Source: an uncultured Clostridia bacterium
Lineage (GTDB): Bacteria > Bacillota > Clostridia > Christensenellales > Borkfalkiaceae
Assembly (NCBI GenBank): GCA_944346885.1
Contig: CALVMR010000005.1
Location: 1-64,000, forward strand
Direction: 5' to 3'
DNA length: 64,000 nt
A program made the translations under genes and the position numbers. The notes beneath the pieces are model-generated. The model had not been told where the DNA came from and made no database searches. It worked only from the letters and a program-made list of their open reading frames with translations. The first letter of the stretch is position 1. Each line of letters opens with the position of its first letter. Below are positions 25,866 through 58,549 of this stretch, piece after piece.

Positions 25866-26234
25866 AATCCGCCAAATTTCGACGCGATTCGCGCTTTTTT
25901 TATCGATTGAACGGGCTTGTTAAAAAATTTTATCAACAAAAATACAAACATCTGTTCTTTCCTCTGCCCGCCTTTGCCTTCCTCGCCGCCGTGTAACCGC
26001 CCGCACGCCGAACTCCCGCGTCCGCCGTGCCGCCGCCCGAACAGACGCGCCCCGCCCGCCACCATGCCGCCGCCCGCACAGCCGCCTCTGCCGCGCGCCC
26101 GGCCTTGTCTGCCTTTATCCGCCTTTCCCCTCCTTTCCTCGCCTTTGCCGCGCACCTCTTCCGCCGAGGCAATTTTCTCCCCCGCGCGCCCGTTTTGGCG
26201 CTTGGAAAAAATTGTGCGCGCACGGCAAAAATTA

Positions 26235-26262
26235 TTGACAAATCCGAAAAATCTGTTATACT
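26235..26262 (+). promoter_or_regulatory. Promoter of tRNA-Arg(ACG)
   Basis: TTGACA (26235-26240), 16-base spacer, TATACT (26257-26262), 41 bases upstream of the tRNA. Confidence 0.75.
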
Positions 26263-26303
26263 AATATGGCATGCTGCAAACAGGGTGCGTTTGCAGCCGC
26301 CGT

Positions 26304-26380
26304 GCGCCCTTAGCTCAATTGGATAGAGCGTTGGTCTACGGAACCAAAGGTTAGGGATTCGAGCTCCTTAGGGCGCGCCA
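26304..26380 (+). tRNA. tRNA-Arg, anticodon ACG
   Basis: Acceptor stem GCGCCCT/AGGGCGC, D arm GCTC...GAGC, anticodon arm TTGGT-CTACGGA-ACCAA, T arm AGGGA-TTCGAGC-TCCTT with one G-U pair, and encoded CCA. Reads CGU after deamination to inosine. Its 3' end is copied twice downstream (26502-26515, 26648-26661). Confidence 0.95.
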
Positions 26381-26381
26381 C

Positions 26382-26415
26382 AAAAACAGCACAGACTTTT
26401 GTCTGTGCTGTTTTT
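26382..26415 (+). terminator. Terminator of tRNA-Arg(ACG)
   Basis: AAAAACAGCACAGAC/GTCTGTGCTGTTTTT stem with a TTTT loop, ending in the T-run. Confidence 0.95.
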
Positions 26416-26435
26416 GTTATGCACCCATGGCAGAC

Positions 26436-26519
26436 CAAATTGGTTGCGCCGAAGGCGCAAGCTATTCGTGCACGAAGTGCTTTGCGGCGCAAGCCGCAAG
26501 CCTCCTTAGGGCGCGTGCC
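26436..26519 (+). repeat. Hairpin repeat R1 ending in the tRNA-Arg 3' sequence
   Basis: 84-bp unit, nearly identical to 26582-26665. It consists of three small hairpins in a row (TTGCGCC-GAA-GGCGCAA, GCAC-GAA-GTGC, TTGCGGC-GCAA-GCCGCAA) and then CTCCTTAGGGCGCG (26502-26515), identical to the tRNA-Arg end at 26364-26377. A further terminator-like hairpin AAAACCTGC/GCGGGTTTT follows at about 26538-26560. Confidence 0.8.
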
Positions 26520-26581
26520 CGCCCCTTCGCTCCGCCGCAAAACCTGCCTTTGCGGGTTTTGTTGTGTGTCGTCAAAGCGCT

Positions 26582-26665
26582 CAAATCGGTTGCGCCGAAG
26601 GCGCAAGCTATTCGTGCACGGAGTGCTTTGCGGCGCATGCCGCAAGCCTCCTTAGGGCGCGTGCC
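26582..26665 (+). repeat. Hairpin repeat R2 ending in the tRNA-Arg 3' sequence
   Basis: Second copy, 146 bases after R1, with three substitutions (T/C, A/G and A/T). It again ends with CTCCTTAGGGCGCG (26648-26661), directly before the methyltransferase promoter. Confidence 0.8.
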
Positions 26666-26700
26666 GTTTGTATGCAAAGGGGATTGTATCTAACAAACGA

Positions 26701-26729
26701 TTGCGAAAACCGCCCGTATATGCTATAAT
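26701..26729 (+). promoter_or_regulatory. Promoter of the methyltransferase gene
   Basis: TTGCGA (26701-26706), 17-base spacer, TATAAT (26724-26729). The predicted start of transcription lies about six bases before the ATG at 26742, so the message would be nearly leaderless; no SD is present. Confidence 0.65.
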
Positions 26730-26741
26730 TACAATACAGCG

Positions 26742-28208
26742 ATGGAAACAAAAATGCAAACAACTTCCGCCGAAAAATTAAACGGGCGTTTTTATACGCT
26801 GGAATTTATCGTTGACAACGTGCTTGACCTTGCAAGTTACCATGGTCAAACGATTTTAAAAAAACACGTCATCGACAACAGCTGCGGAGATGGCGCATTT
26901 TTGGTTGCCGCCGTAACCCGATACTGTAAAGAATTTTTAAAACATAATTCTGATCGGCAAATCCTCTCCCAAGAACTGTCCTGTTACATTCACGGCATTG
27001 AAATTGACGAAACAGCATGCCGGATGTGTCTCGAACGTTTAAATTGCGTCGTGCAAAACTACGGCATCGAATATGTAGATTGGGATATAACCTGCACCGA
27101 CACATTGACCGTTGAAAAATACAACGGAAAAATGGATTATGTTGTGGGAAATCCGCCTTACGTCCGCATCCACAACTTAGAAAATGCTTGCACCATCAAA
27201 AATTTTTCCTTTACGCAGACCGGCATGACCGATTTATATATCGCCTTTTTCGAAATCGGGTTGAGAATGTTGAACAATAACGGCACATTAGGCTATATTA
27301 CGCCAAGTTCCTATTTCAACAGTCTTGCGGGAAAGCGTCTTCGCTCTTATTTCGTCCAACATAATCTATTGGATAAAATCGTCGATTTAAAACATTTTCA
27401 AGCATTTTCCGCAACCACTTATACTGCAATCACCGTTTTAAAAAAGAACCGCTCTAAAAAAACAACCGATTATTTTCAATTTAATAATAAGAACAACTTT
27501 CCCTATTTTGTAGACGCACTACATGCCAAAGACTATTATATCAAAGATAGCTTTTATTTTTCCAAGAAAGAGAGTCTTGAAAAATTAAATGCACTTTTAC
27601 AGTTTGTTCCCAAAAAAGAGCATTTCTCCGTTAAAAACGGTTTTGCTACTCTTGCCGATAATTTTTTCATTGGCGATTTTGATTTTGATGACTTTACGAT
27701 CCCGATTATAAAAGCATCGACGGGAAAACGCAGCAAATGTCTCTTCCCCTATACAAACGGTAAATTGATACCTTATCAAGACTTGACCGATAAATCTTGT
27801 ATTCGAAATTATTTTGAATCTCATAAAGATATGCTACAGCGGCGAAGTTTGGAACGCAACGGCGTTTGGTACGGATTCGGGCGTTCACAGGGTATTAAAG
27901 ATGTTTATCGATGTAAATACGCCATTAACACGCTGCTGCGAACACCTTCTGACCTCAAACTTATCAAGTGCGATAAAGGCGTAGGCGTTTACAGCGGACT
28001 TTATATTATGACGGATATAGAAGAAAACGAACTCCGTGAAATTTTGTATAACGAAGATTTTATCACTTATATATCTCTTTTGGGAAAATATAAAAGCGGC
28101 GGCTATTATACCTTTTCCTCAAAAGATTTAAAAATTTATCTTGAATACAGCTACACACAGAGGAAAAAATTTAATTATGAACAACGCACAATTTCTGACG
28201 GTTCTTAA
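26742..28208 (+). CDS. Gamma-class DNA adenine-N6 methyltransferase (Eco57I/TaqI type) of a restriction-modification system
   Basis: 488 residues. AdoMet motif I is DNSCGDGAFL (45-54), the acidic motif II IHGIEIDE (83-90) and the catalytic motif IV NPPY (137-140); order I-IV and a large C-terminal target-recognition part (about 230-480) mark the gamma class. It methylates adenine to protect host DNA. Base and codon use is far more AT-rich than in the flanking genes, a sign of transfer. It overlaps the next gene by 32 bases. No SD; a second ATG is four codons in. Confidence 0.88.
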   Translation: METKMQTTSAEKLNGRFYTLEFIVDNVLDLASYHGQTILKKHVIDNSCGDGAFLVAAVTRYCKEFLKHNSDRQILSQELSCYIHGIEIDETACRMCLERLNCVVQNYGIEYVDWDITCTDTLTVEKYNGKMDYVVGNPPYVRIHNLENACTIKNFSFTQTGMTDLYIAFFEIGLRMLNNNGTLGYITPSSYFNSLAGKRLRSYFVQHNLLDKIVDLKHFQAFSATTYTAITVLKKNRSKKTTDYFQFNNKNNFPYFVDALHAKDYYIKDSFYFSKKESLEKLNALLQFVPKKEHFSVKNGFATLADNFFIGDFDFDDFTIPIIKASTGKRSKCLFPYTNGKLIPYQDLTDKSCIRNYFESHKDMLQRRSLERNGVWYGFGRSQGIKDVYRCKYAINTLLRTPSDLKLIKCDKGVGVYSGLYIMTDIEENELREILYNEDFITYISLLGKYKSGGYYTFSSKDLKIYLEYSYTQRKKFNYEQRTISDGS

Positions 28209-28887
28209 ACGTTCTTTTATCACCTATTTGCAAACCGGCGCCCAAAGCAACAAAAAGCTGGAAGTTTTACACGGAGCCATTGCAGAGGATCTAAACCAAA
28301 GATTAAACAATAAAAACTATACAATCTTTTCACTTGGTTACGAAAGCGGAAAGGAAAAGAAAATAACGGGACGATACGTCGATAAAACCGTTGATATAAC
28401 AATTGCCGAAAAGAATAAGCCGGTCGCCGGAATTGCCGTAAAATATATTATGAGCAATTACAAACAGAACTCAAATAATTATTTTGAAAATATGCTCGGC
28501 GAAACAGCAAATCTTCGCTCCGCGCAAATCCCGTATTTTCAAATTTTCATCATTCCCGACAGTATTCCATACTTTAAAAAAGAAGGAGAAATTGCCAAGC
28601 CTGAAAAAATCAGCGAACACGATATTAAAAAATACATGGCGCTTTCTCATGACAATCCTTACGAATTTTTACATACCCCGCTAAAAACCTTAGTCTTTAT
28701 CGTGCATATTAAGAGCGACGGTGAAAACCATTCTTTTGCCGACAAAGAAGAATACAAGAATTTTTATTTATCGCATCCTTTTGAAATAAACTTATCTTCT
28801 TTACAATTTACATTTGGAAATACCATAGTATACAACGATTACGATACTTTTTTGGAAAAAGTTTCCCATACGATCAAAGGACTTTAA
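28177..28887 (+). CDS. Probable type II restriction endonuclease
   Basis: 236 residues from the ATG at 28177 inside the end of the methyltransferase gene (overlap 32 bases), hence coupled. I do not recognise a named family. A PD-(D/E)xK-like core is plausible: the aspartate in YVDKTVDITIAEKNK (about residue 80), then VAGIAVKYIMSNYKQN where the ExK position reads AVK, followed by FENMLGETANLRSA, a pattern common in restriction enzymes. Position, strand, overlap and the same AT-rich composition as the methyltransferase support the call; substrate site unknown. Confidence 0.7.
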   Translation: MNNAQFLTVLKRSFITYLQTGAQSNKKLEVLHGAIAEDLNQRLNNKNYTIFSLGYESGKEKKITGRYVDKTVDITIAEKNKPVAGIAVKYIMSNYKQNSNNYFENMLGETANLRSAQIPYFQIFIIPDSIPYFKKEGEIAKPEKISEHDIKKYMALSHDNPYEFLHTPLKTLVFIVHIKSDGENHSFADKEEYKNFYLSHPFEINLSSLQFTFGNTIVYNDYDTFLEKVSHTIKGL

Positions 28888-28910
28888 TTCTATATAACCA
28901 ATATCGTACA

Positions 28911-28953
28911 AACAAACGACCGCCGCAAAACCCGTCTGCGGCGGTCGTTTGTT
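28911..28953. terminator. Bidirectional terminator between the RM genes and rarA
   Basis: 17-bp arms around AAACCCGTC, containing CGACCGCCGCA/TGCGGCGGTCG and ending in TTTGTT. Confidence 0.75.
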
Positions 28954-28960
28954 CTCCCCT

Positions 28961-30289
28961 TTATTTTTCTTCGTTCTCTTTTTTCCAACGCTTGATCTCG
29001 GCAAGGCGCGCCGCATACTTCGCCTCCAACCCCTCTTCGGTCGGCGTATAATACGCCCGCCCCAAAAGCGAATCGGGCAGGCACTGCATGGAAGTCAGCT
29101 TTTCCGCCGCGTCGTGCGCGTATTGGTAGCCTTTGCCGTAATCCAGCTCTTTCATCAGCTTTGTGGGCGCGTTGCGGATGACCAGCGGCACGGGCTCGGC
29201 AAGCTGTTCGAGCGCGTCCTTTTTTGCCCGCCCGTAAGCGACGTACAGCGCGTTCGACTTGGGCGCCATCGCCATGTAGACGACTGCCTGCGTCAAATGC
29301 ACGGTGCATTCGGGCATGCCGATAAAGTGGCACGCGTGGTAAGCGGCGACGGCGATCTCCAACGCGCGCGGATCGGCAAGCCCCACGTCTTCCGAAGCAA
29401 AGCGCGTCACCCGCCGCGCAACGTACAGCGGGTCCTCCCCCGCTTCGAGCATGCGCGCCAGCCAGTACACGGCGGCGTCCGGGTCGGAATTGCGCATAGA
29501 CTTGTGCAGCGCGGAGATAAGGTTGTAATGCTCCTCGCCCGTTTTATCGTACAGCAGCGATTTTTTGGAGGTGATGCCCTCGATGGTCTCGCGGGTGACG
29601 GCAACCGACCCGTCCGCCCCCATATCGCCGTTGAGCACCGCCATTTCCAGCGTGGAAAGAGCGCTGCGCGCGTCCCCGTTGGCGAACGCCGCGATCGCTT
29701 CGAGCAGATCGTCTGCGATCTCTATCTTTTGCCCGCCGAACCCGCGCGGATCGTGCAGGGCGTGTTTTAAAAGGGAAACCAGCTCTTCGGTTTTGAGCGC
29801 CTGCAACACAAATACCTTGCAGCGGGAGAGCAATGCCCCGTTCACTTCAAAAGACGGGTTTTCGGTGGTCGCGCCGATCAAAATGATGCTCCCCTTTTCC
29901 ACAAAGGGCAAAAACGCATCCTGCTGCGCCTTGTTAAAGCGGTGGATCTCATCGACGAAGAGTATGGTCTTTTCGCCGAAGCGGCGGTTTTTCTCCGCCT
30001 GTTCCATCACCTGTTTGATCTCTTTGATGCCGCTCGTCACCGCCGAAAAATCAATAAACTTTGCGCGCGTGCGGTTGGCGATGATGCGCGCAAGCGTCGT
30101 TTTTCCCACGCCGGGCGGGCCCCAAAAGATCATGGAACCCACTTTATCGCCCTCGATGATGCGGCGCAGCACCTTCCCTTCTCCCAAAAGGTGTTTTTGC
30201 CCCGCAAACTCGTCCAGCGTGCGCGGGCGCAGCCGCGCCGCAAGCGGCAGGCTCGCCTCGCTTTCAAACATGTTCATCTGTTCGCTCAT
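28961..30289 (-). CDS. rarA: Replication-associated recombination protein RarA (MgsA) AAA+ ATPase
   Basis: 442 residues. Clamp-loader-like ATPase: Walker A GPPGVGKTTL, Walker B ILFVDEIHRFNKAQQDAFLP, sensor 1 GATTENPSFEVN, arginine finger region LLSRCKVF, then the MgsA C-terminal domain (DYGKGYQYAHD, CLPDSLLGRAYYTPTEEG). Acts at stalled forks with SSB. The ATG at 30289 has GGAGGGAGAGCG upstream and lies within the last codons of the upstream membrane protein gene (26-base overlap), so the two are co-translated. Confidence 0.96.
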   Translation of the reverse strand: MSEQMNMFESEASLPLAARLRPRTLDEFAGQKHLLGEGKVLRRIIEGDKVGSMIFWGPPGVGKTTLARIIANRTRAKFIDFSAVTSGIKEIKQVMEQAEKNRRFGEKTILFVDEIHRFNKAQQDAFLPFVEKGSIILIGATTENPSFEVNGALLSRCKVFVLQALKTEELVSLLKHALHDPRGFGGQKIEIADDLLEAIAAFANGDARSALSTLEMAVLNGDMGADGSVAVTRETIEGITSKKSLLYDKTGEEHYNLISALHKSMRNSDPDAAVYWLARMLEAGEDPLYVARRVTRFASEDVGLADPRALEIAVAAYHACHFIGMPECTVHLTQAVVYMAMAPKSNALYVAYGRAKKDALEQLAEPVPLVIRNAPTKLMKELDYGKGYQYAHDAAEKLTSMQCLPDSLLGRAYYTPTEEGLEAKYAARLAEIKRWKKENEEK

Positions 30290-40705: not shown

Positions 40706-41542
40706 TTACTCCTTTTGCTCCTTCCCGTCATTTTCCTCCGCGTCCGCCGCAGGCGGCTCCGCTCCTTGCACCGCAGGCGGCTCCGCTTCTTGCGCCGCAG
40801 GCTGCGCCGCTTCTTCCTCCGCAAGCTGCGCCGACTCTTCTTCCGCAGGCGCGGCGTCTTCAAAGAGCGGTGCGCCCGCCACGGGGAACAGCTCCTCTTC
40901 GCTGCATGCAAAACTTTCGCCCGTCAGCTTTTCCAGCGCGGCTTCGAGTTTATGCATCCTGCATTTGAGCGCGCGGATCTCTTCGGCGTTGGGGTCCACT
41001 TTTTCCTGTAAAAGATCGGGCTTTTCGCCGCGGATGCGCACCACGCGCGCAGGAACGCCCACGACCGTTGCGTGCGGCGGCACCTCTTTGAGCACAACGG
41101 CGCCCGCGCCGATCTTGGCGCCCTCCCCCACGGTAAAGCCGCCCAAAACCTTCGCGCCCGAACTGATCACAACATCCTTTTCGATGGTCGGGTGGCGCTT
41201 GCCCTTTTCCTTGCCCGTGCCGCCGAGCGTTACGCCTTGGTAGATGACCACCCCGCTTTTGACCTCCGCCGTCTCTCCGATGACGACGCCCGCGCCGTGG
41301 TCGATGAACACGCCGCCCTCGATCTTGGCGGCGGGATGGATCTCGATGCCCGTCAAAAACTTGGCAAACTGGCTGGTGATGCGCGCCAAAAGTTTTAAAT
41401 GCATGCGGTACAGCCTGTTCGCCCAGCGGTGCCATGACAAAGCATGCACACCCGAATAGGTGAGCCAGATCTCGAACTTATTGCGCGCGGCGGGGTCGTT
41501 CCGCTTCGCCGCGTTGATGTCTGCTCGCAGGCGTTTAAACAT
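40706..41542 (-). CDS. cysE: Serine O-acetyltransferase
   Basis: 278 residues from the ATG at 41542. Left-handed beta-helix hexapeptide repeats with IEIHPAAKIEGGVFIDHGAG, VVIYQGVTLGGTGKEKGKRHP and VGVPARVV, characteristic of CysE. It makes O-acetylserine for CysK (44611-45537). The N-terminal helical part is shorter than in enterobacteria, and the last 80 residues are an acidic Glu/Ala/Pro-rich tail with repeated AEPPAVQGAEPPAA, not part of the enzyme fold. Upstream stop is 59 bases away; operon with alaS. Confidence 0.94.
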   Translation of the reverse strand: MFKRLRADINAAKRNDPAARNKFEIWLTYSGVHALSWHRWANRLYRMHLKLLARITSQFAKFLTGIEIHPAAKIEGGVFIDHGAGVVIGETAEVKSGVVIYQGVTLGGTGKEKGKRHPTIEKDVVISSGAKVLGGFTVGEGAKIGAGAVVLKEVPPHATVVGVPARVVRIRGEKPDLLQEKVDPNAEEIRALKCRMHKLEAALEKLTGESFACSEEELFPVAGAPLFEDAAPAEEESAQLAEEEAAQPAAQEAEPPAVQGAEPPAADAEENDGKEQKE

Positions 41543-41601
41543 GTTACACCTCTTGCACGGAAGCGCAAAAAAGCCCCTCCCCTCTCCTTGCAAAAACTTT
41601 T

Positions 41602-42228
41602 TTACAAAATTTTATTCAAATTGAACGCTTCGAACGCCGCGTCGATCATATCGCGGTTGAACACGCGGTAATCGATGAGGTAGCGGACCACAACGTCGCG
41701 CGCGTCCGCAAAATCATAATATGCGCCGAACGTTTTGAGCAGTGCCAAACTCTCCTTTTGCCGCACGCCCAGCAGCAGGCACAGTTTAAACAGCAGCACC
41801 TTTTCGGGCAAAAAACTGCCGCGCACGATCTTTTTCCACACATAGGCGGAAACGCCGAGCTTTTCGGGCACGGAAGCGGCGTCCTCCCCGTAACTTGCGA
41901 TCGTTTTCAGCAACAGCGCCCCGCCCCTGCTGCGGCGGCGAAACAGCGCCGCAAAGCGCTCGCGCGCGGGCGCCACGCGGAAAGAATAGGTAAAACTTCC
42001 GTCCACAAAACGCTCTTTGAACTCTTGCAAAAGTTTTTCGCACTGCGGCTGGTAGCACAGTTTGCGCCGTTCGCTGACGCCGTTTTCCCCTTCGGTGACG
42101 CGGTTTCCGCTGCGCAGCAGCATGGCAACGGTCACGGGCTCGTACGAGGGCAGCGCGCAGATAAGGTCAAAATTGCTGTAATTTTTGCAAAAATACGCAT
42201 CGAGATCGGCGAGAAACCCTTCGCTCAT
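41602..42228 (-). CDS. Protein with a C-terminal HTH-like domain of the macro-domain-associated type
   Basis: 208 residues, start MSEGFLADLDAYF with GGGAGGCAGG upstream. The first half is not recognised (LLRSGNRVTEGENGVSERRK). The second half (FAALFRRRSRGGALLLKTIA, KLGVSAYVWKKIVRGSFLPE, KLCLLLGVRQKESLALLKTF, VVRYLIDYRVFNRDMIDAAF) resembles the divergent helix-turn-helix segment that follows macro domains and kinases in many Clostridia. It may be a nucleic-acid or protein-binding module. First gene before cysE-alaS. Confidence 0.55.
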   Translation of the reverse strand: MSEGFLADLDAYFCKNYSNFDLICALPSYEPVTVAMLLRSGNRVTEGENGVSERRKLCYQPQCEKLLQEFKERFVDGSFTYSFRVAPARERFAALFRRRSRGGALLLKTIASYGEDAASVPEKLGVSAYVWKKIVRGSFLPEKVLLFKLCLLLGVRQKESLALLKTFGAYYDFADARDVVVRYLIDYRVFNRDMIDAAFEAFNLNKIL

Positions 42229-42264
42229 GTGCCTGCCTCCCAAAAGAGAAGTTTTATCCATACC

Positions 42265-42292
42265 ATTATACAATATTTGCCCGAAAATTCAA
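42265..42292 (-). promoter_or_regulatory. Promoter of the 41602-cysE-alaS operon
   Basis: TTGAAT (42287-42292), 16-base spacer, TATAAT (42265-42270). Confidence 0.6.
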
Positions 42293-42362
42293 CGCATTTT
42301 GCGGCGGCGCAAAAATTTTTTTGGGATGATTGTAAAATCTTTACAGGAAATGTATCTTTTTG

Positions 42363-42391
42363 TTGCTATTTTTTGTGAAATATGTTATACT
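42363..42391 (+). promoter_or_regulatory. Promoter of the DeoR-family gene
   Basis: TTGCTA (42363-42368), 17-base spacer, TATACT (42386-42391); transcription would begin near 42398, after the only upstream ATG of the gene. Confidence 0.6.
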
Positions 42392-43182
42392 GTCTCTGTA
42401 AAAAGTTTGCGGAGGGCACGGCTACGAAACACGCACGTATCGAAGAGATCGCTTTGCTGATCGAAAAAAACGGAAAAATGAGTTTGGAGGAGCTGGCAAA
42501 GCAGTTCCCCGATGTATCCGACATGACGCTTCGGCGCGATCTGTTGGAGCTGGAAAAGGAAAACAAGGTCATCCGCGTACGCGGCGGCGCCATGTCTGTA
42601 CTCGAAGTGCAAAAGCGCTCCGGCGAGGCATACGCGCAAAAGAGCACCATCAACACAGACGCGAAAAAAGTGATCGCCAAAAAGGCGGTATCGCTTATCG
42701 ACGACGGGGTGAGCCTGTTCCTCGACGGCGGCACCACGGCGCTCGCCCTTGCCAAGGAACTGCCCGATAAACCCTGCCACATCTTCACCAACGGGTTGGT
42801 GGTCGCCGAAGAGCTGGCGCACAAAAAACAGCCCGAAGTTATCCTTGTGGGCGGTTCTCTGATCAAAGAAAACCTCTCCACCGCCTCGCCCTATTCCAAG
42901 GTGTTTTTGGAGAACTCGAACTTTGAACTTGCCATCATCTCCGCCTCGGCGTTCTCCTTTGAACAGGGCTTTTCCTGCATTTCGCAGGTGGAGAGCGAAC
43001 TGCTGAAATTTATCCTCGCCCGCGCCAAGATGGTATACATGATGCTGGATACTTCCAAGATCGGCAAGATCATGCCCTACACCTTTGCCACGGCGGAAAA
43101 CATCGACGTGCTCATCACGGACGACAATTTCCCCGCGGACGTGAAAGAGCGCTTTGAAGCGCACAACATCGTCGTCATTTAA
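42382..43182 (+). CDS. DeoR/GlpR-family transcriptional regulator
   Basis: N-terminal DeoR helix-turn-helix (HARIEEIALLIEKNGKMSLE, DMTLRRDLLELEKENKV) and a sugar-phosphate-sensing DeoRC domain (DGVSLFLDGGTTALALAKEL, ILVGGSLIKENLSTASP). It likely represses a sugar operon elsewhere. The start is uncertain. The ATG at 42382 lies inside the promoter's -10 region and has no SD. GGAGGG at 42411-42416 is ideally placed for codon 42424, but that codon is ACG (reading KHARIEEI, the expected N-terminus). The outer ATG is given as a limit. Confidence 0.85.
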   Translation: MLYCLCKKFAEGTATKHARIEEIALLIEKNGKMSLEELAKQFPDVSDMTLRRDLLELEKENKVIRVRGGAMSVLEVQKRSGEAYAQKSTINTDAKKVIAKKAVSLIDDGVSLFLDGGTTALALAKELPDKPCHIFTNGLVVAEELAHKKQPEVILVGGSLIKENLSTASPYSKVFLENSNFELAIISASAFSFEQGFSCISQVESELLKFILARAKMVYMMLDTSKIGKIMPYTFATAENIDVLITDDNFPADVKERFEAHNIVVI

Positions 43183-55415: not shown

Positions 55416-55502
55416 TTTTGCGCATAACGCAGCCGAACGGATACATTTTGCACATAACACAACCGCACGGATACATTTTGCGCAAAAAACAGCCGCGCAC
55501 AG
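55415..55502. repeat. 30-bp tandem repeat after the RimJ-type gene
   Basis: Units at 55415-55444, 55445-55474 and 55475-55502, starting ATTTTGCGCATAACGCAGCC, the third degenerate. Confidence 0.75.
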
Positions 55503-55541
55503 GCGCCGCAAACCAAACGGGCACCAAAATCACCTAAATAC

Positions 55542-55628
55542 GCGAGTATGGCGAAACAGGCAGACGCAAGGGACTTAAAATCCCTCGCCCGCGAGGGCGT
55601 ATCGGTTCAAATCCGATTACTCGCACCA
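55542..55628 (+). tRNA. tRNA-Leu, anticodon TAA
   Basis: Acceptor GCGAGTA/TACTCGC, anticodon arm AGGGA-CTTAAAA-TCCCT, long variable arm CGCCCGCGAGGGCG, T arm TCGG-TTCAAAT-CCGA, encoded CCA. Confidence 0.96.
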
Positions 55629-55631
55629 TAC

Positions 55632-55676
55632 AAAAAAACACGGACCGAGGCAATAAGCCTCGGTCCGTGTTTTTTT
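55632..55676 (+). terminator. Terminator of the tRNA cluster
   Basis: 20-bp stem ending in GGACCGAGGC/GCCTCGGTCC with AATAA loop and a TTTTTTT tail. Confidence 0.96.
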
Positions 55677-55768
55677 ACTTAACCTTTCGTTCGCCTGCCG
55701 ATTGCAGGATAACGTCTGCGCTTTTGCGCCCGTCGGCGGTGCAAGCCCGCCGCAACATGTTATTGCGG
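55671..55768. repeat. 98-bp direct repeat, left copy, flanking HTH-MntA/HepT
   Basis: Matches 56783-56880 at 85 of 98 aligned positions with no gaps. It contains small inverted repeats (CCTGC...GCAGG, CGGCGG...CCGCCG) and the core GCAGGATAACGTCTGC. It begins in the T-run of the tRNA-Leu terminator. Confidence 0.85.
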
Positions 55769-55787
55769 TGCGTTCCTCCTGTTTTGA

Positions 55788-56144
55788 TCAGTCCTCCCCG
55801 CCTGCTGCATTACGAGAATTTTTCAATAACCCATACATTTCAGGGATGCCGTGCATCACCGTATCGTAAACGATCGTTAAATCGATAAAACCGTAATCGT
55901 GGACGATGCGGTTTCTCATGCCTTTGATCTCCCGCCACGGCAAACCCTTATGTTCCTCTTTGTATGACGGGGTAAGTTTGTCGCTATTCTCCGCGATCTG
56001 TATCAAGCGAAACAGAATGCAATCTATCAGCACGGGATCGGATTCGACCTCGCCGTACGTTTTTCCCTCGGTATGCTCCACCAAAAACTGCAAATCTGCC
56101 AATATTTTACCGAGATAATATTTGTCGTTTTTTACGTTATCCAT
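55788..56144 (-). CDS. hepT: HepT-type toxin, HEPN ribonuclease (DUF86)
   Basis: 118 residues. The HEPN RNase motif Rx4HxY is exact in RNRIVHDY, within WREIKGMRNRIVHDYGFIDL. In known pairs HepT cuts RNA and the antitoxin MntA transfers AMP groups to the tyrosine of this motif. The gene overlaps the end of the HTH-MntA gene by eight bases, so the antitoxin is made first from a shared message. AT-richer than neighbouring genes. Confidence 0.9.
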   Translation of the reverse strand: MDNVKNDKYYLGKILADLQFLVEHTEGKTYGEVESDPVLIDCILFRLIQIAENSDKLTPSYKEEHKGLPWREIKGMRNRIVHDYGFIDLTIVYDTVMHGIPEMYGLLKNSRNAAGGED

Positions 56145-56607
56145 AGATCTTTATTCCGTCCCTTAATATCTCCTGCACAAGCGCCGCATTATGATCGAGT
56201 TGAGCAACATCGAGCACATCGACTTTTTTCTTCAATTCTTCTCTGAGCGTTTCCACAAGCCCGAAGAATTTAAGTCCGTTTAGCGGCATTGCCACAAGCA
56301 GATCCACGTCGCTCTTTTCCGTTGCCTTCCCCTTCGCATAAGAACCGAACAGATAACCATATTCCACGCCGTATTCTTCAAACACGCGGGAACACGCCTC
56401 TCTGATCCTATCGATCGTCAGCAGACCGTGTTCTTCATCAATGCGCCCGTACTCTTCCAACGTCCTGCACAAGAAATTATATTTGACTTCCGGCAAATTT
56501 GCTTCACCGTTTTCATACTTGATATACGTCCTTCGGCTGACTCCCAATATCTGTGCGGCACAAACCTGCGTCAGCCCTTTCGATATTCTGATATTTTTCA
56601 GTTCCAT
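56137..56607 (-). CDS. mntA: MntA-type nucleotidyltransferase antitoxin fused to an XRE HTH domain
   Basis: 156 residues. Residues 1-52 are a Cro/C1 helix-turn-helix (NIRISKGLTQVCAAQILGVS, RRTYIKYENGEANLP). Residues 70-156 are a minimal nucleotidyltransferase with the exact GSx10DxD motif GSYAKGKATEKSDVDLLV. Classical MntA has only the latter domain; the fusion would allow one protein to repress the operon and AMPylate HepT. The ATG at 56607 has GGGAGG seven bases upstream; an ATG two codons earlier is too close to it. Two palindromes lie upstream. Confidence 0.9.
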   Translation of the reverse strand: MELKNIRISKGLTQVCAAQILGVSRRTYIKYENGEANLPEVKYNFLCRTLEEYGRIDEEHGLLTIDRIREACSRVFEEYGVEYGYLFGSYAKGKATEKSDVDLLVAMPLNGLKFFGLVETLREELKKKVDVLDVAQLDHNAALVQEILRDGIKIYG

Positions 56608-56624
56608 ATACATACCTCCCTTGC

Positions 56625-56653
56625 AGTATACCACAATGCACCGTCTAAGTCAA
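56625..56653 (-). promoter_or_regulatory. Promoter of HTH-mntA/hepT
   Basis: TTGACT (56648-56653), 17-base spacer, TATACT (56625-56630); short leader. Confidence 0.75.
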
Positions 56654-56660
56654 TCGATAA

Positions 56661-56708
56661 GTGCAGAAATTGCACATGCTTGAAATTTAAAATGTGCAGA
56701 TTTTGCAC
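56661..56708 (-). promoter_or_regulatory. Two palindromic operator candidates upstream of HTH-mntA
   Basis: GTGCAGAAATTGCAC (56661-56675) and GTGCAGATTTTGCAC (56694-56708), centres 33 bp apart (three helical turns), just upstream of the -35 box. The shared GTGCARAWWTTGCAC pattern fits binding by the HTH part of the adjacent protein. Confidence 0.65.
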
Positions 56709-56782
56709 ACATCTCAAATGAAATTCGGCTGCTTCTTGAACACCAAAAATAACGCAAGCCGAACCATGTTCAACTTGCGTTA

Positions 56783-56880
56783 TTTTTTACCTTACCTTTT
56801 GTTTGCCTGCCGCTCGCAGGATAACGTCTGCACTTTTGCACCAGTCGGCGGTGCAAGCCCGCCGCGGCGCGTTATTGCGG
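56783..56880. repeat. 98-bp direct repeat, right copy, flanking HTH-MntA/HepT
   Basis: Partner of 55671-55768 in the same orientation; 1112 bp offset, so the toxin-antitoxin pair with its control region lies exactly between the copies. A related short sequence GTTATTGCGGCAC recurs up to about 56930. Confidence 0.85.
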
Positions 56881-56923
56881 CACACCGTTGCGGCACGCTG
56901 TTGCAGCGCAATGTTGCCGCGCG

Positions 56924-58549
56924 TTATTCCGTAAGCGTTTTATCCTCGTGCGGCACGTTTTGCTTGATGAGGCGGATAAAGGTTTCGGGATTGACGACGA
57001 CCACATCCTCATCCAAAAGAGAGACCATCTCCACCACGTCGTTATAATCCATCGACCAAACGTGCAGGTTCACATAGGTGTAGCCCTCGATGGTCGTGGC
57101 GTCGGCGGGATAGGCATTGATCTGCTCGGCGATCCCCCGCGCCGTGGCGTTCCACATGGTGGCGCGGCAGGTCACGAACGGTTTGCCGTTTTCAGACCAA
57201 TAGACGGAGCCGTGTTCCCCCACATAGCTGTCTGCATAAGTGCAGAACAAAAATCCTTCCGCATTTTCCATTTCGGAATAATACCGAATGGTGTTTTCGG
57301 ATAGCCCGCTGTCCAAGATCTTTACGACGGAGAGATCGGTCGCATCCAAATACGTATCGAGCACGGCGCAATACCGTTCGAGCCCCTCCGCAGTATACGA
57401 CTGCGGATACGTGTACCCCAGCCCGGATACGCTGCACACAAAGGTATCCCCGATCTGCGCCCTGCGGAAGGTGCGCGAAAGGATGTTGGGTCCCAAGCTG
57501 TACAGCGCGGGGCTGACCGACCAGCCCATTTCAAAATTCCCGCGGGATGCGCCCATATACTTATCCTGTTCGAACGTACCGCCGTACCAGCACTGCAAAT
57601 TGTCTCCGTCGCTGTTGACGATGGTGATGTAGTGCTTATCGGTGGAATACGCCGAAAGGTCTGTATCCGTCTCGTTGGGCTGCGTAAACTGCTCCTCCCC
57701 GAAAAACTCTGTGCAGGAGAAAACCGTCATGTTGTAGCAATAGTCCGAAGCCAGCGTAAAACTGCCGTACGTAGAGCTGAACCCGACGTCCGTCCCCTCG
57801 TCCAGCGGGCACCAGCCGTACACGGCGCAGCCCGCGCACCATTTTTGCACCTCGCCGCGGAATTGCAGCGCGCGCACGTTGTTGTCGGTGATGAAATAGC
57901 AGTAATACTTATTGGCGATCGCCCAGTCCGTAAGCTGGATCAGCCCGCCGTCTTGCTGCACCAGCCCGGAAGGGTCGAGCTTATCTTTATAGGTCTCGAA
58001 GCACTCTTCCGCCGACATCTGCGTCGCATCTGCCTTCTGTTCCAGCCCGTTTTCGTCCGCCCAGTCTTTGAGGGAAGCATCGACCATGGCGACGCCCTCC
58101 GCCCCGGCGATCGTGCGGGCGCAGTTCGTCGATTCTCCGTCCGCCGCGTTGTACAGCACGTACCCCGTGCCGATGTTCGCCTTATAATCTTCCAGCATTT
58201 CGGCAAGGGTGACGTTGCGGCTGCCCTTGCCGTACACCGTTTCCAGCTCGCTCAGCCATGTTTCGTACTGCCCCGAAACATGGTGGTAATACTTCGATTC
58301 TCCCTTCTGTGCAAACAGCCCCTGCACGGATTCGGCAAAAAACTGCTGCTCTTTGCTCAGGCTTTCGCTCTTTCCGTAAACGAGCAGGTCCTCGTCCGTC
58401 ATCGTAAACGAACGGAAATACCCCTCCGCTTCCTGCGTATCGTCCTCTTCGCCGTCCGGCTTTCCGCACGCCGCAAAGGCGAACAGCGCAAAAGCGCCCA
58501 GCAAAACCGCCAGCAGCAGCGCCGCCGCTTTCGTAAACCGTACTTTCAT
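56924..58549 (-). CDS. Exported GxGYxYP-family lipoprotein
   Basis: 541 residues with signal peptide and lipobox FAAC (cysteine about 28). Contains the family signature GLGYTYPQSY near residue 376 and the long alpha/beta domain typical of the GxGYxYP putative glycoside-hydrolase family, including HYITIVNSDGDNLQCWYGG, ISENTIR-like helices and HVWSMDYNDVVEMVSLLDED. Enzyme activity not shown here. Follows a larger paralogue and a sugar ABC transporter in one operon, so a role in surface glycan processing is likely. SD AAGGAG. Confidence 0.82.
   Translation of the reverse strand: MKVRFTKAAALLLAVLLGAFALFAFAACGKPDGEEDDTQEAEGYFRSFTMTDEDLLVYGKSESLSKEQQFFAESVQGLFAQKGESKYYHHVSGQYETWLSELETVYGKGSRNVTLAEMLEDYKANIGTGYVLYNAADGESTNCARTIAGAEGVAMVDASLKDWADENGLEQKADATQMSAEECFETYKDKLDPSGLVQQDGGLIQLTDWAIANKYYCYFITDNNVRALQFRGEVQKWCAGCAVYGWCPLDEGTDVGFSSTYGSFTLASDYCYNMTVFSCTEFFGEEQFTQPNETDTDLSAYSTDKHYITIVNSDGDNLQCWYGGTFEQDKYMGASRGNFEMGWSVSPALYSLGPNILSRTFRRAQIGDTFVCSVSGLGYTYPQSYTAEGLERYCAVLDTYLDATDLSVVKILDSGLSENTIRYYSEMENAEGFLFCTYADSYVGEHGSVYWSENGKPFVTCRATMWNATARGIAEQINAYPADATTIEGYTYVNLHVWSMDYNDVVEMVSLLDEDVVVVNPETFIRLIKQNVPHEDKTLTE

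What the first reader, a model, noticed from the sequence alone, without database searches (positions are those of the whole stretch)
26304..28953. AT-rich restriction-modification island beside tRNA-Arg
A gamma-class adenine methyltransferase and an overlapping, unrecognised nuclease-like protein sit between a tRNA gene and rarA, with base composition clearly different from both sides. tRNA 3' ends are classical integration targets, and copies of that end precede the island.
Basis: partly seen in the sequence, partly recalled or inferred. Interest (0 to 1): 0.58.

Follow-up and report, generated by a model that had tools for sequence, protein, structure and literature searches.

The report
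Restriction island beside tRNA-tailed repeats
A two-gene restriction-modification system was acquired next to a tRNA gene, and the 'copies of the tRNA end' in front of it turn out to be a conserved, folded repeat family that sits behind many different tRNA genes of this genus, each copy usually carrying the last bases of its own tRNA.

Summary
A gamma-class adenine methyltransferase (26742-28208) and an overlapping 235-aa protein (28180-28887), GC about 36% against about 60%, lie between tRNA-Arg(ACG) and rarA. The second protein belongs to a widespread unnamed family (141 relatives; methyltransferase beside it in 78 of 80 loci, fused in 4). Its confident model is a PD-(D/E)XK fold with invariant E59-D72-K88-E103, the relocated-glutamate layout of NgoMIV. 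So this is a type II restriction-modification pair, probably acquired: 2 of 40 genus genomes have it, at different loci, and relatives G008 and G029 lack it at this place. The tRNA-end copies are not its scars: they occur at sites without it. They belong to a ~100-nt structured repeat. A core-only model without tail found 150 listed copies in 32 of 40 genus genomes; where a tRNA lies upstream, 69 of 85 copies end in that tRNA's own 3' tail (12 anticodon kinds; chance 0.4%), edge at position 61; three hairpins covary strongly. Serine recombinases lie near these repeats ten times more often than expected, but this genome has none. The pair is a new member of a known kind; the tRNA-tailed repeats matched no known family in my searches and are the surprise.

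The parts
26304..26380 (+). tRNA-Arg(ACG) gene
   Evidence: ARAGORN; Rfam tRNA 61.4 bits
26381..26424 (+). intrinsic-terminator-like hairpin behind the tRNA
   Evidence: inverted repeat I1; followed by a T run
26413..26514 (+). tRNA-tailed structured repeat, unit 1 (core 26430-26502, then tRNA-Arg tail)
   Evidence: R1 and R2 matches; tail 12 of 12
26559..26660 (+). tRNA-tailed structured repeat, unit 2 (core 26576-26648, then tRNA-Arg tail)
   Evidence: R1 and R2 matches; tail 12 of 12
26667..28960 (.). AT-rich insert, approximate edges; absent between repeats and rarA in G008 and G029
26701..26729 (+). promoter-like TTGCGA-17 nt-TATAAT before the methyltransferase
   Evidence: read by eye; not tested
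26742..28208 (+). gamma-class N6-adenine DNA methyltransferase, 488 aa
28180..28887 (+). predicted PD-(D/E)XK type II restriction endonuclease, 235 aa, unnamed family
28911..28953 (.). perfect 17-nt inverted repeat, terminator-like, between the endonuclease and rarA (convergent)
   Evidence: I5
28961..30289 (-). rarA (host gene, right neighbour)
   Evidence: 40 of 40 genus genomes have a match, 30 of the listed best ones are close orthologues

Best explanation
The island is a compact, self-contained type II restriction-modification pair acquired horizontally and inserted between a pre-existing array of tRNA-tailed repeats and rarA. The methyltransferase puts N6-methyladenine on its site; the small endonuclease, started inside the end of the methyltransferase gene, cuts the same site when unmethylated, with a PD-(D/E)XK centre whose second carboxylate sits on the following helix (E103). 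Shown: anatomy, families, co-occurrence and fusion of the two genes, predicted fold, sporadic presence, sites without it. Inferred: the activities, the shared target, the defence role. The tRNA-end copies are not its att sites. They are the 3' tails of a conserved structured repeat of this genus (three covarying hairpins) that sits behind many tRNA genes, each copy usually ending in positions 61 onward of its own tRNA. Its mechanism is open; I think most likely (about 0.45) that it works at the DNA level as a hairpin-forming site copied or inserted at tRNA 3' ends with duplication of the target's tail.
For: RM pair: families; methyltransferase upstream in 78 of 80 loci; overlap in 46 of 52 complete pairs and 4 single-frame fusions; invariant E59/D72/K88/E103 in 76 sequences; model pLDDT 95.6 matching restriction-type nucleases. 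Acquisition: 2 of 40 genus genomes, different loci, sites without it, AT-richer than flanks in 67 of 68 loci. Repeats: present without the island; 69 of 85 tails match own tRNA, others 0.43%; sharp edge and orientation; 109 double-change cells against 32.1 shuffled and at most 30 slid. DNA-level lean: GNA loops in 79 of 106 and 74 of 136 hairpins; about 4 G-U among about 565 paired cells.
Against: No activity is shown. Structural Z of 9-10 is only modestly above the level of common folds and Foldseek on the PDB is weak (7.7e-3). 16 of 85 tails do not match and 65 of 150 copies have no tRNA in the held stretch. The 5' strand complementary to the tail is only partly supported (41 of 69 above the other-tRNA mean). 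Array copies are not independent (41 genome-by-tRNA combinations). No motor for the repeats was found: this genome has neither PF07508 nor PF01797.
Confidence: 0.8

Rival explanations
1. One reading: the island integrated into the tRNA-Arg 3' end by site-specific recombination, and the tRNA-end copies are its attachment-site duplications.
For: Position, composition, sporadic presence. Large serine recombinases lie within 5 kb of repeat clusters 13 times against 1.2 expected, so tRNA ends are used by other elements of the genus; the insert begins just behind a tail copy.
Against: The copies are there without the island (G008, G029). No copy at the right edge. No PF07508 match in this genome. 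The recombinase elements seen elsewhere lie upstream of the repeats, between tRNA and repeats, whereas here the array is still joined to the tRNA.
Confidence: 0.12
2. The repeats act as RNA: a tRNA-like trailer that competes for, or exchanges with, the 3' end of the tRNA in front of it (the tail is identical to tRNA positions 61-76 and could pair with the tRNA's 5' strands).
For: Same strand as the tRNA in 84 cases against 1; first unit usually about 50 nt behind the tRNA; consensus fold with closing stem and three arms; strong covariation.
Against: A terminator-like hairpin stands between tRNA and repeat; G-U pairs nearly absent in the hairpins; no Rfam family; no expression data.
Confidence: 0.3
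3. The repeats are only accumulated scars (attL/attR remains) of many past integrations at tRNA ends, with no function of their own.
For: Tail duplications are what tRNA integrations leave; copies within one genome are nearly identical; some arrays break off inside a unit; recombinases lie nearby.
Against: Scars of unrelated elements would not share one core behind 12 tRNA kinds, nor keep hairpins by compensatory change.
Confidence: 0.2
4. The second protein is not the partner endonuclease but an unrelated PD-(D/E)XK protein, and the methyltransferase is an orphan or epigenetic regulator like CamA.
For: CamA-type enzymes are among the methyltransferase's solved relatives; no activity known.
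Against: Near-constant adjacency, overlap and four fusions; invariant catalytic-type residues.
Confidence: 0.08

Closest known systems
Type II restriction-modification systems with gamma-class m6A methyltransferases (M.TaqI and HincII are named as such in PMC4081073, passages read)
   Same: Gamma-class methyltransferase beside a small separate PD-(D/E)XK protein; overlapping genes; sporadic, AT-rich
   Different: The endonuclease family is in none of Pfam, NCBIfam or PADLOC at useful scores (2 of 76 members hit PADLOC PDLC03558 weakly, best 2.7e-5); four members are methyltransferase-first fusions
NgoMIV/Cfr10I/Bse634I group of restriction endonucleases (PD-XXK-E active site, PMC551604 passages)
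   Same: Predicted fold (VIA Z 9.2 to NgoMIV) and a glutamate on the helix after the lysine strand (K88 to E103)
   Different: No recognisable sequence similarity; the arginine recognition motif of the CCGG group (recalled) is absent from the invariant columns; target unknown
NucC, cyclic-trinucleotide-activated nuclease
   Same: Best structural score (Z 10.4)
   Different: Partner here is a DNA methyltransferase, not a cyclase; 11% identity; scores of the restriction enzymes are within about 1
tRNA-targeted integrative elements with large serine recombinases (seen in this genus); tycheposons (search listing only)
   Same: tRNA 3' end as target; duplicated tail
   Different: The repeats here are about 100 nt, carry no genes, and occur without any recombinase in the genome
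REP/RAYT and integron attC hairpin repeats (recalled)
   Same: Short, folded, sometimes tandem repeats
   Different: Each copy ends in the tail of the tRNA in front of it; no Y1 transposase in 16 of the 32 genomes with repeats

Membership tests
Type II restriction-modification system | DNA methyltransferase with SAM and NPP(Y/F/W) motifs | tested here: met
Type II restriction-modification system | separate adjacent gene with an endonuclease fold and conserved catalytic residues | tested here: met
   In silico only:
Type II restriction-modification system | both enzymes act on the same specific sequence | not testable with these tools
   Needs methylome and cleavage assay
NgoMIV/Cfr10I (CCGG) group | PD-(D/E)XK fold with the second carboxylate relocated to the next helix | tested here: met
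   Sequence and model: D72, K88, E103; motif described in PMC551604
NgoMIV/Cfr10I (CCGG) group | arginine-containing recognition motif near the relocated glutamate (recalled) | tested here: not met
   Columns 89-103 hold invariant N, Y, Q, S, F and E, no invariant Arg
NgoMIV/Cfr10I (CCGG) group | detectable sequence relationship | tested here: inconclusive
   No PDB sequence matched the profile up to E 10; such enzymes are often too diverged
tRNA-integrated genomic island | next to a tRNA 3' end, atypical composition, sporadic | tested here: met
tRNA-integrated genomic island | tRNA 3'-end repeat bounding both sides of the island | tested here: not met
   Copies on the left only, and present without the island
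tRNA-integrated genomic island | integrase gene on the island | tested here: not met
   Only two genes in the insert; no PF07508 match in the genome; tyrosine recombinases were not searched genome-wide
REP/RAYT or IS200-like repeats (for the tRNA-tailed repeats) | Y1 transposase in the genome | tested here: not met
   PF01797 absent from this genome and from 16 of 32 genomes with repeats
Integron cassette array (for the tRNA-tailed repeats) | integron integrase and attC consensus | not tested
   No genome search left
Known Rfam RNA family (for the tRNA-tailed repeats) | match to a covariance model | tested here: not met
   Only the tRNA reaches its gathering score in 26200-29000; the rest are chance-level rows

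The most novel reading that the evidence does not exclude
The tRNA-tailed repeats are an undescribed class of dispersed element: a hairpin site, probably acting as single-stranded or cruciform DNA, that is copied to many tRNA genes, each time acquiring a tailored duplicate of tRNA positions 61-76, and that supplies spare integration sites around which mobile cargo such as this restriction pair, Avs5-like and SIR2 genes gathers.
Probability: 0.35. Interest if true: 0.85.

Novelty: new variant of a known kind. Interest (0 to 1): 0.58.

Why it matters
The restriction pair adds a widespread endonuclease family that no curated library used here names. More important, the tRNA-end copies, which a reader would file as integration scars, are a structured repeat family that matches its tail to the tRNA in front of it at a dozen tRNA kinds. 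That asks how an element acquires a target-specific tail and bears on how integrative elements recognise tRNA genes; both are testable in the genus and in the laboratory. (The novelty grade is a compromise: the pair alone is a new member of a known kind; the repeats alone matched no known kind in the tests made.)

Tried and rejected
RNA family search over the repeats: nothing but the tRNA. Sequence search of the endonuclease against solved structures, single and profile: nothing. Relatives on plasmids and phages and in viral contigs: none. The methyltransferase gave only generic adenine methyltransferases on plasmids. Y1 transposase as motor of the repeats: rejected, absent from 16 of 32 genomes with repeats. 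AT-rich cargo behind the repeats as a rule: not general; the first 500 nt after the last repeat are below 45% GC in 11 of 28 sites. tRNA proximity of the pair elsewhere: 8 loci have a tRNA within about 2 kb of the pair; no control was made and I claim nothing. 5' complement of the tail: only partial. The single hit of the core model outside the family (G470) lies in what looks like coding sequence and I take it as chance. Literature: (search listings only; passages read only of PMC4081073 and PMC551604) gave nothing like the tRNA-tailed repeats; that is only as wide as those terms and that library.

Rows dropped: from the endonuclease alignment five of 80 loci with interrupted or partial frames (L007, L027, L061, L067, L081) and the G014 copy (L002); the methyltransferase alignment holds 30 sequences, a selection. 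From the tail test nothing was dropped: all 150 listed matches were scored (the match list was itself cut at the 150 or so best), 65 had no tRNA in the held stretch. The 85 are not independent: the 69 matching copies stand for 41 genome-by-tRNA combinations. The chance figure (0.43%) uses tails of other amino acids only. The core model was built from copies first found with an Arg-tailed model, so kinds of repeat without such a core are not covered.
Full report
1. The observation. Between tRNA-Arg(ACG) (26304-26380) and rarA (28961-30289, minus strand) lie two overlapping genes on the plus strand, 26742-28208 and 28180-28887. GC drops from about 0.60 to 0.35-0.43 over them. The tRNA 3' end CTCCTTAGGGCGCG recurs at 26502 and 26648, inside an 84-nt direct repeat. 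All of this is as reported. The AT-rich part begins after the second repeat, near 26667.

2. What the genes are. The first is a gamma-class N6-adenine methyltransferase (Pfam N6_Mtase and Eco57I, about 1e-24; PADLOC type II methyltransferase model, 7e-142), with the NPPY motif invariant and CGxG(A)F conserved. Solved relatives by sequence include site-specific adenine methyltransferases and BseCI. The second had no family in Pfam, NCBIfam or PADLOC, only a weak PHROG match of unknown function (2.4e-6). A scan of genome contigs found 141 relatives, 80 kept, by record title in Clostridia, Bacteroidales, Proteobacteria and others; the closest is Pumilibacter muris (71%). A methyltransferase relative lies directly upstream in 78 of 80 loci (some cut by contig ends). 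The two genes overlap in 46 of 52 pairs complete on both sides, and in 4 loci (L012, L019, L058, L078) they are one open frame with the nuclease part last.

3. The endonuclease. In 76 aligned sequences E59, D72, K88 and E103 are invariant, with the signature NYxQNSNNYFENMLGET. The AlphaFold model is confident (pLDDT 95.6, pTM 0.92): D72 stands at the start of strand 73-77, K88 lies in strand 80-89, E103 in helix 94-113. [quoted passage not shown] Structure comparison gives NucC Z 10.4, BsaWI 9.3, NgoMIV 9.2, AgeI 9.0. Foldseek on the PDB lists mostly restriction enzymes at the top, but weakly (best 7.7e-3); the viral library gives a phage 'restriction endonuclease' at 8.6e-10. Z of 9-10 is only modestly above the level seen for common folds, so the fold class is the claim, not a particular relative. 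The arginine recognition motif of the CCGG group (recalled) is absent, so I do not file it there. The Asn-rich helix would suit an A/T-containing target; that is a guess.

4. Acquisition. In the genus, 2 of 40 genomes have the endonuclease: this one and G014. The G014 copy is 47-52% identical, lies between other genes and is also AT-rich (about 0.48 against 0.63). At family level 9 of 301 genomes and 5 of 18 genera have it. Across 68 loci with enough flank, the pair is more AT-rich than its flanks in 67, by more than 5 points in 55. I read the stretch behind rarA in 28 other genus genomes. The interval is syntenic in G008, G007 and, as far as its contig goes, G029. G008 has tRNA-Arg, three repeats and rarA with 497 bp between tRNA and rarA and no pair. 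G029 has the repeats abutting rarA without the pair (its contig begins inside the array). G007 has other, host-like genes there. In the other 25, tRNA-Arg(ACG) was not beside rarA in the stretch held, some of which are short. Genomes are incomplete, so absences are approximate.

5. The tRNA-end copies. They are there at sites without the island, so they are not its scars. A strict pattern found the repeat in 7 of 40 genus genomes, and a core pattern with up to two mismatches in 17 of 301 genomes, all 17 in the own genus. Where the contig reached far enough it was mostly right behind tRNA-Arg(ACG). A covariance model (R1) found further copies in 24 of 201 genomes, 21 of the own genus and 3 of two other genera. 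Copies at other loci sat behind tRNA-Ala(GGC), Ala(CGC), Glu(TTC), Val(GAC), Lys(CTT) and Leu(TAA), each ending in the 3' end of that tRNA, besides stretches with no tRNA in view.

6. Test of the tail. To avoid circularity I built a core-only model without tail (R2) and searched the 40 genus genomes: matches in 32, of which 150 places were used as listed. All 150 were held as loci and scored. 85 had a same-strand tRNA upstream in the held stretch. In 69 of 85 the 12 nt after the core match positions 61-72 of that tRNA at 10 of 12 or better (mean over the 85, 10.6). For tRNAs of other amino acids the mean is 6.2 and 0.43% reach 10. The 69 cover 12 anticodon kinds and 41 genome-by-tRNA combinations. 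The left edge is sharp: 67 of 69 show at most one extra identical base before position 61. 84 copies have a same-strand tRNA upstream within 400 nt and 1 has an opposite-strand tRNA nearby. Misses: 16 of 85 do not match, some of them units that break off; 65 of 150 have no tRNA in view.

7. Structure of the repeat. RNAalifold on 31 Arg-type units gives a closing stem plus three hairpins, 7 of 27 pairs with compensatory changes. On 35 diverse cores the three hairpins are paired in 97.6% of 579 cells (shuffled 76.3%), with 109 double-change cells against 32.1 in shuffles (0 of 500 reach it) and at most 30 in slid controls; 11 of 17 pairs change on both sides. Shuffles do not remove relatedness, but the slid controls do not approach it either. 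G-U pairs are nearly absent (4 of about 565 paired cells, counted). Loops are GNA triplets in 79 of 106 second hairpins, 74 of 136 third hairpins and 31 of 91 first hairpins, with a C-G closing pair in 134 of 136 third hairpins. d(GNA) triloops closed by C-G are known as unusually stable DNA hairpins (recalled), so I lean to a DNA-level role; the RNA reading stays open.

8. Mobile elements near the repeats. Large serine recombinases (PF07508) lie within 5 kb of the 94 repeat clusters 13 times against 1.2 expected; in 11 of 13 the recombinase is upstream (8 clusters), and in those clusters no tRNA was found next to the repeats. In G003, G010, G022 and G039 a recombinase C-terminus runs up to the tRNA tail in front of the repeats (named from its sequence). 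Cargo near such repeats includes an Avs5-like SIR2 protein, another SIR2 protein, a KAP ATPase and a type I specificity subunit (hand-picked proteins, not a census). So tRNA 3' ends are integration sites in this genus. But this genome has no PF07508 match and its array is still joined to the tRNA, so the restriction pair itself is not shown to have come that way.

9. Verdict. The pair is an ordinary, well-formed type II restriction-modification system with an unnamed endonuclease family, most likely acquired horizontally. I found no description of it in the searches listed, which is a limited check.

Noticed in passing
window 26413-26514 and 26559-26660; family-wide in L154-L157, L168-L196, L227-L246, L277-L336: Structured repeats with three covarying hairpins behind many tRNA genes of the genus, each copy usually ending in the 3' tail of its own tRNA.
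   Followed up: yes
own genome: L246 (C18, behind tRNA-Val), L298 (C42, behind tRNA-Asn), L306 (C25, contig start): This genome carries further, more degenerate copies of the repeat behind other tRNAs; the C25 ones have a tail close to that of tRNA-Glu(CTC).
   Followed up: partly
L338 4010-5806; L337 32-3812: Two copies of the repeat with the same tRNA tail enclose other genes (an AT-rich 358-aa frame between Glu-tailed copies; several frames between Asn-tailed copies), which looks cassette-like.
   Followed up: partly
L341 1354-6118; L351 4029-8204 and 10631-13301: Defence-type genes (Avs5-like SIR2, another SIR2, KAP ATPase, type I specificity subunit) and large serine recombinases beside tRNA-tailed repeats.
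   Followed up: partly
L012, L019, L058, L078: Natural fusions of the methyltransferase and the endonuclease in one frame, nuclease last, the reverse of the usual order in combined enzymes.
   Followed up: no
G000:C1:25245-26489: A second rarA-like gene, about 42% identical, in this genome; similar ones in most genus genomes.
   Followed up: no
window 55500-57000 and 41500-43000: Two further GC dips (0.47-0.51), the first beside tRNA-Leu(TAA).
   Followed up: no
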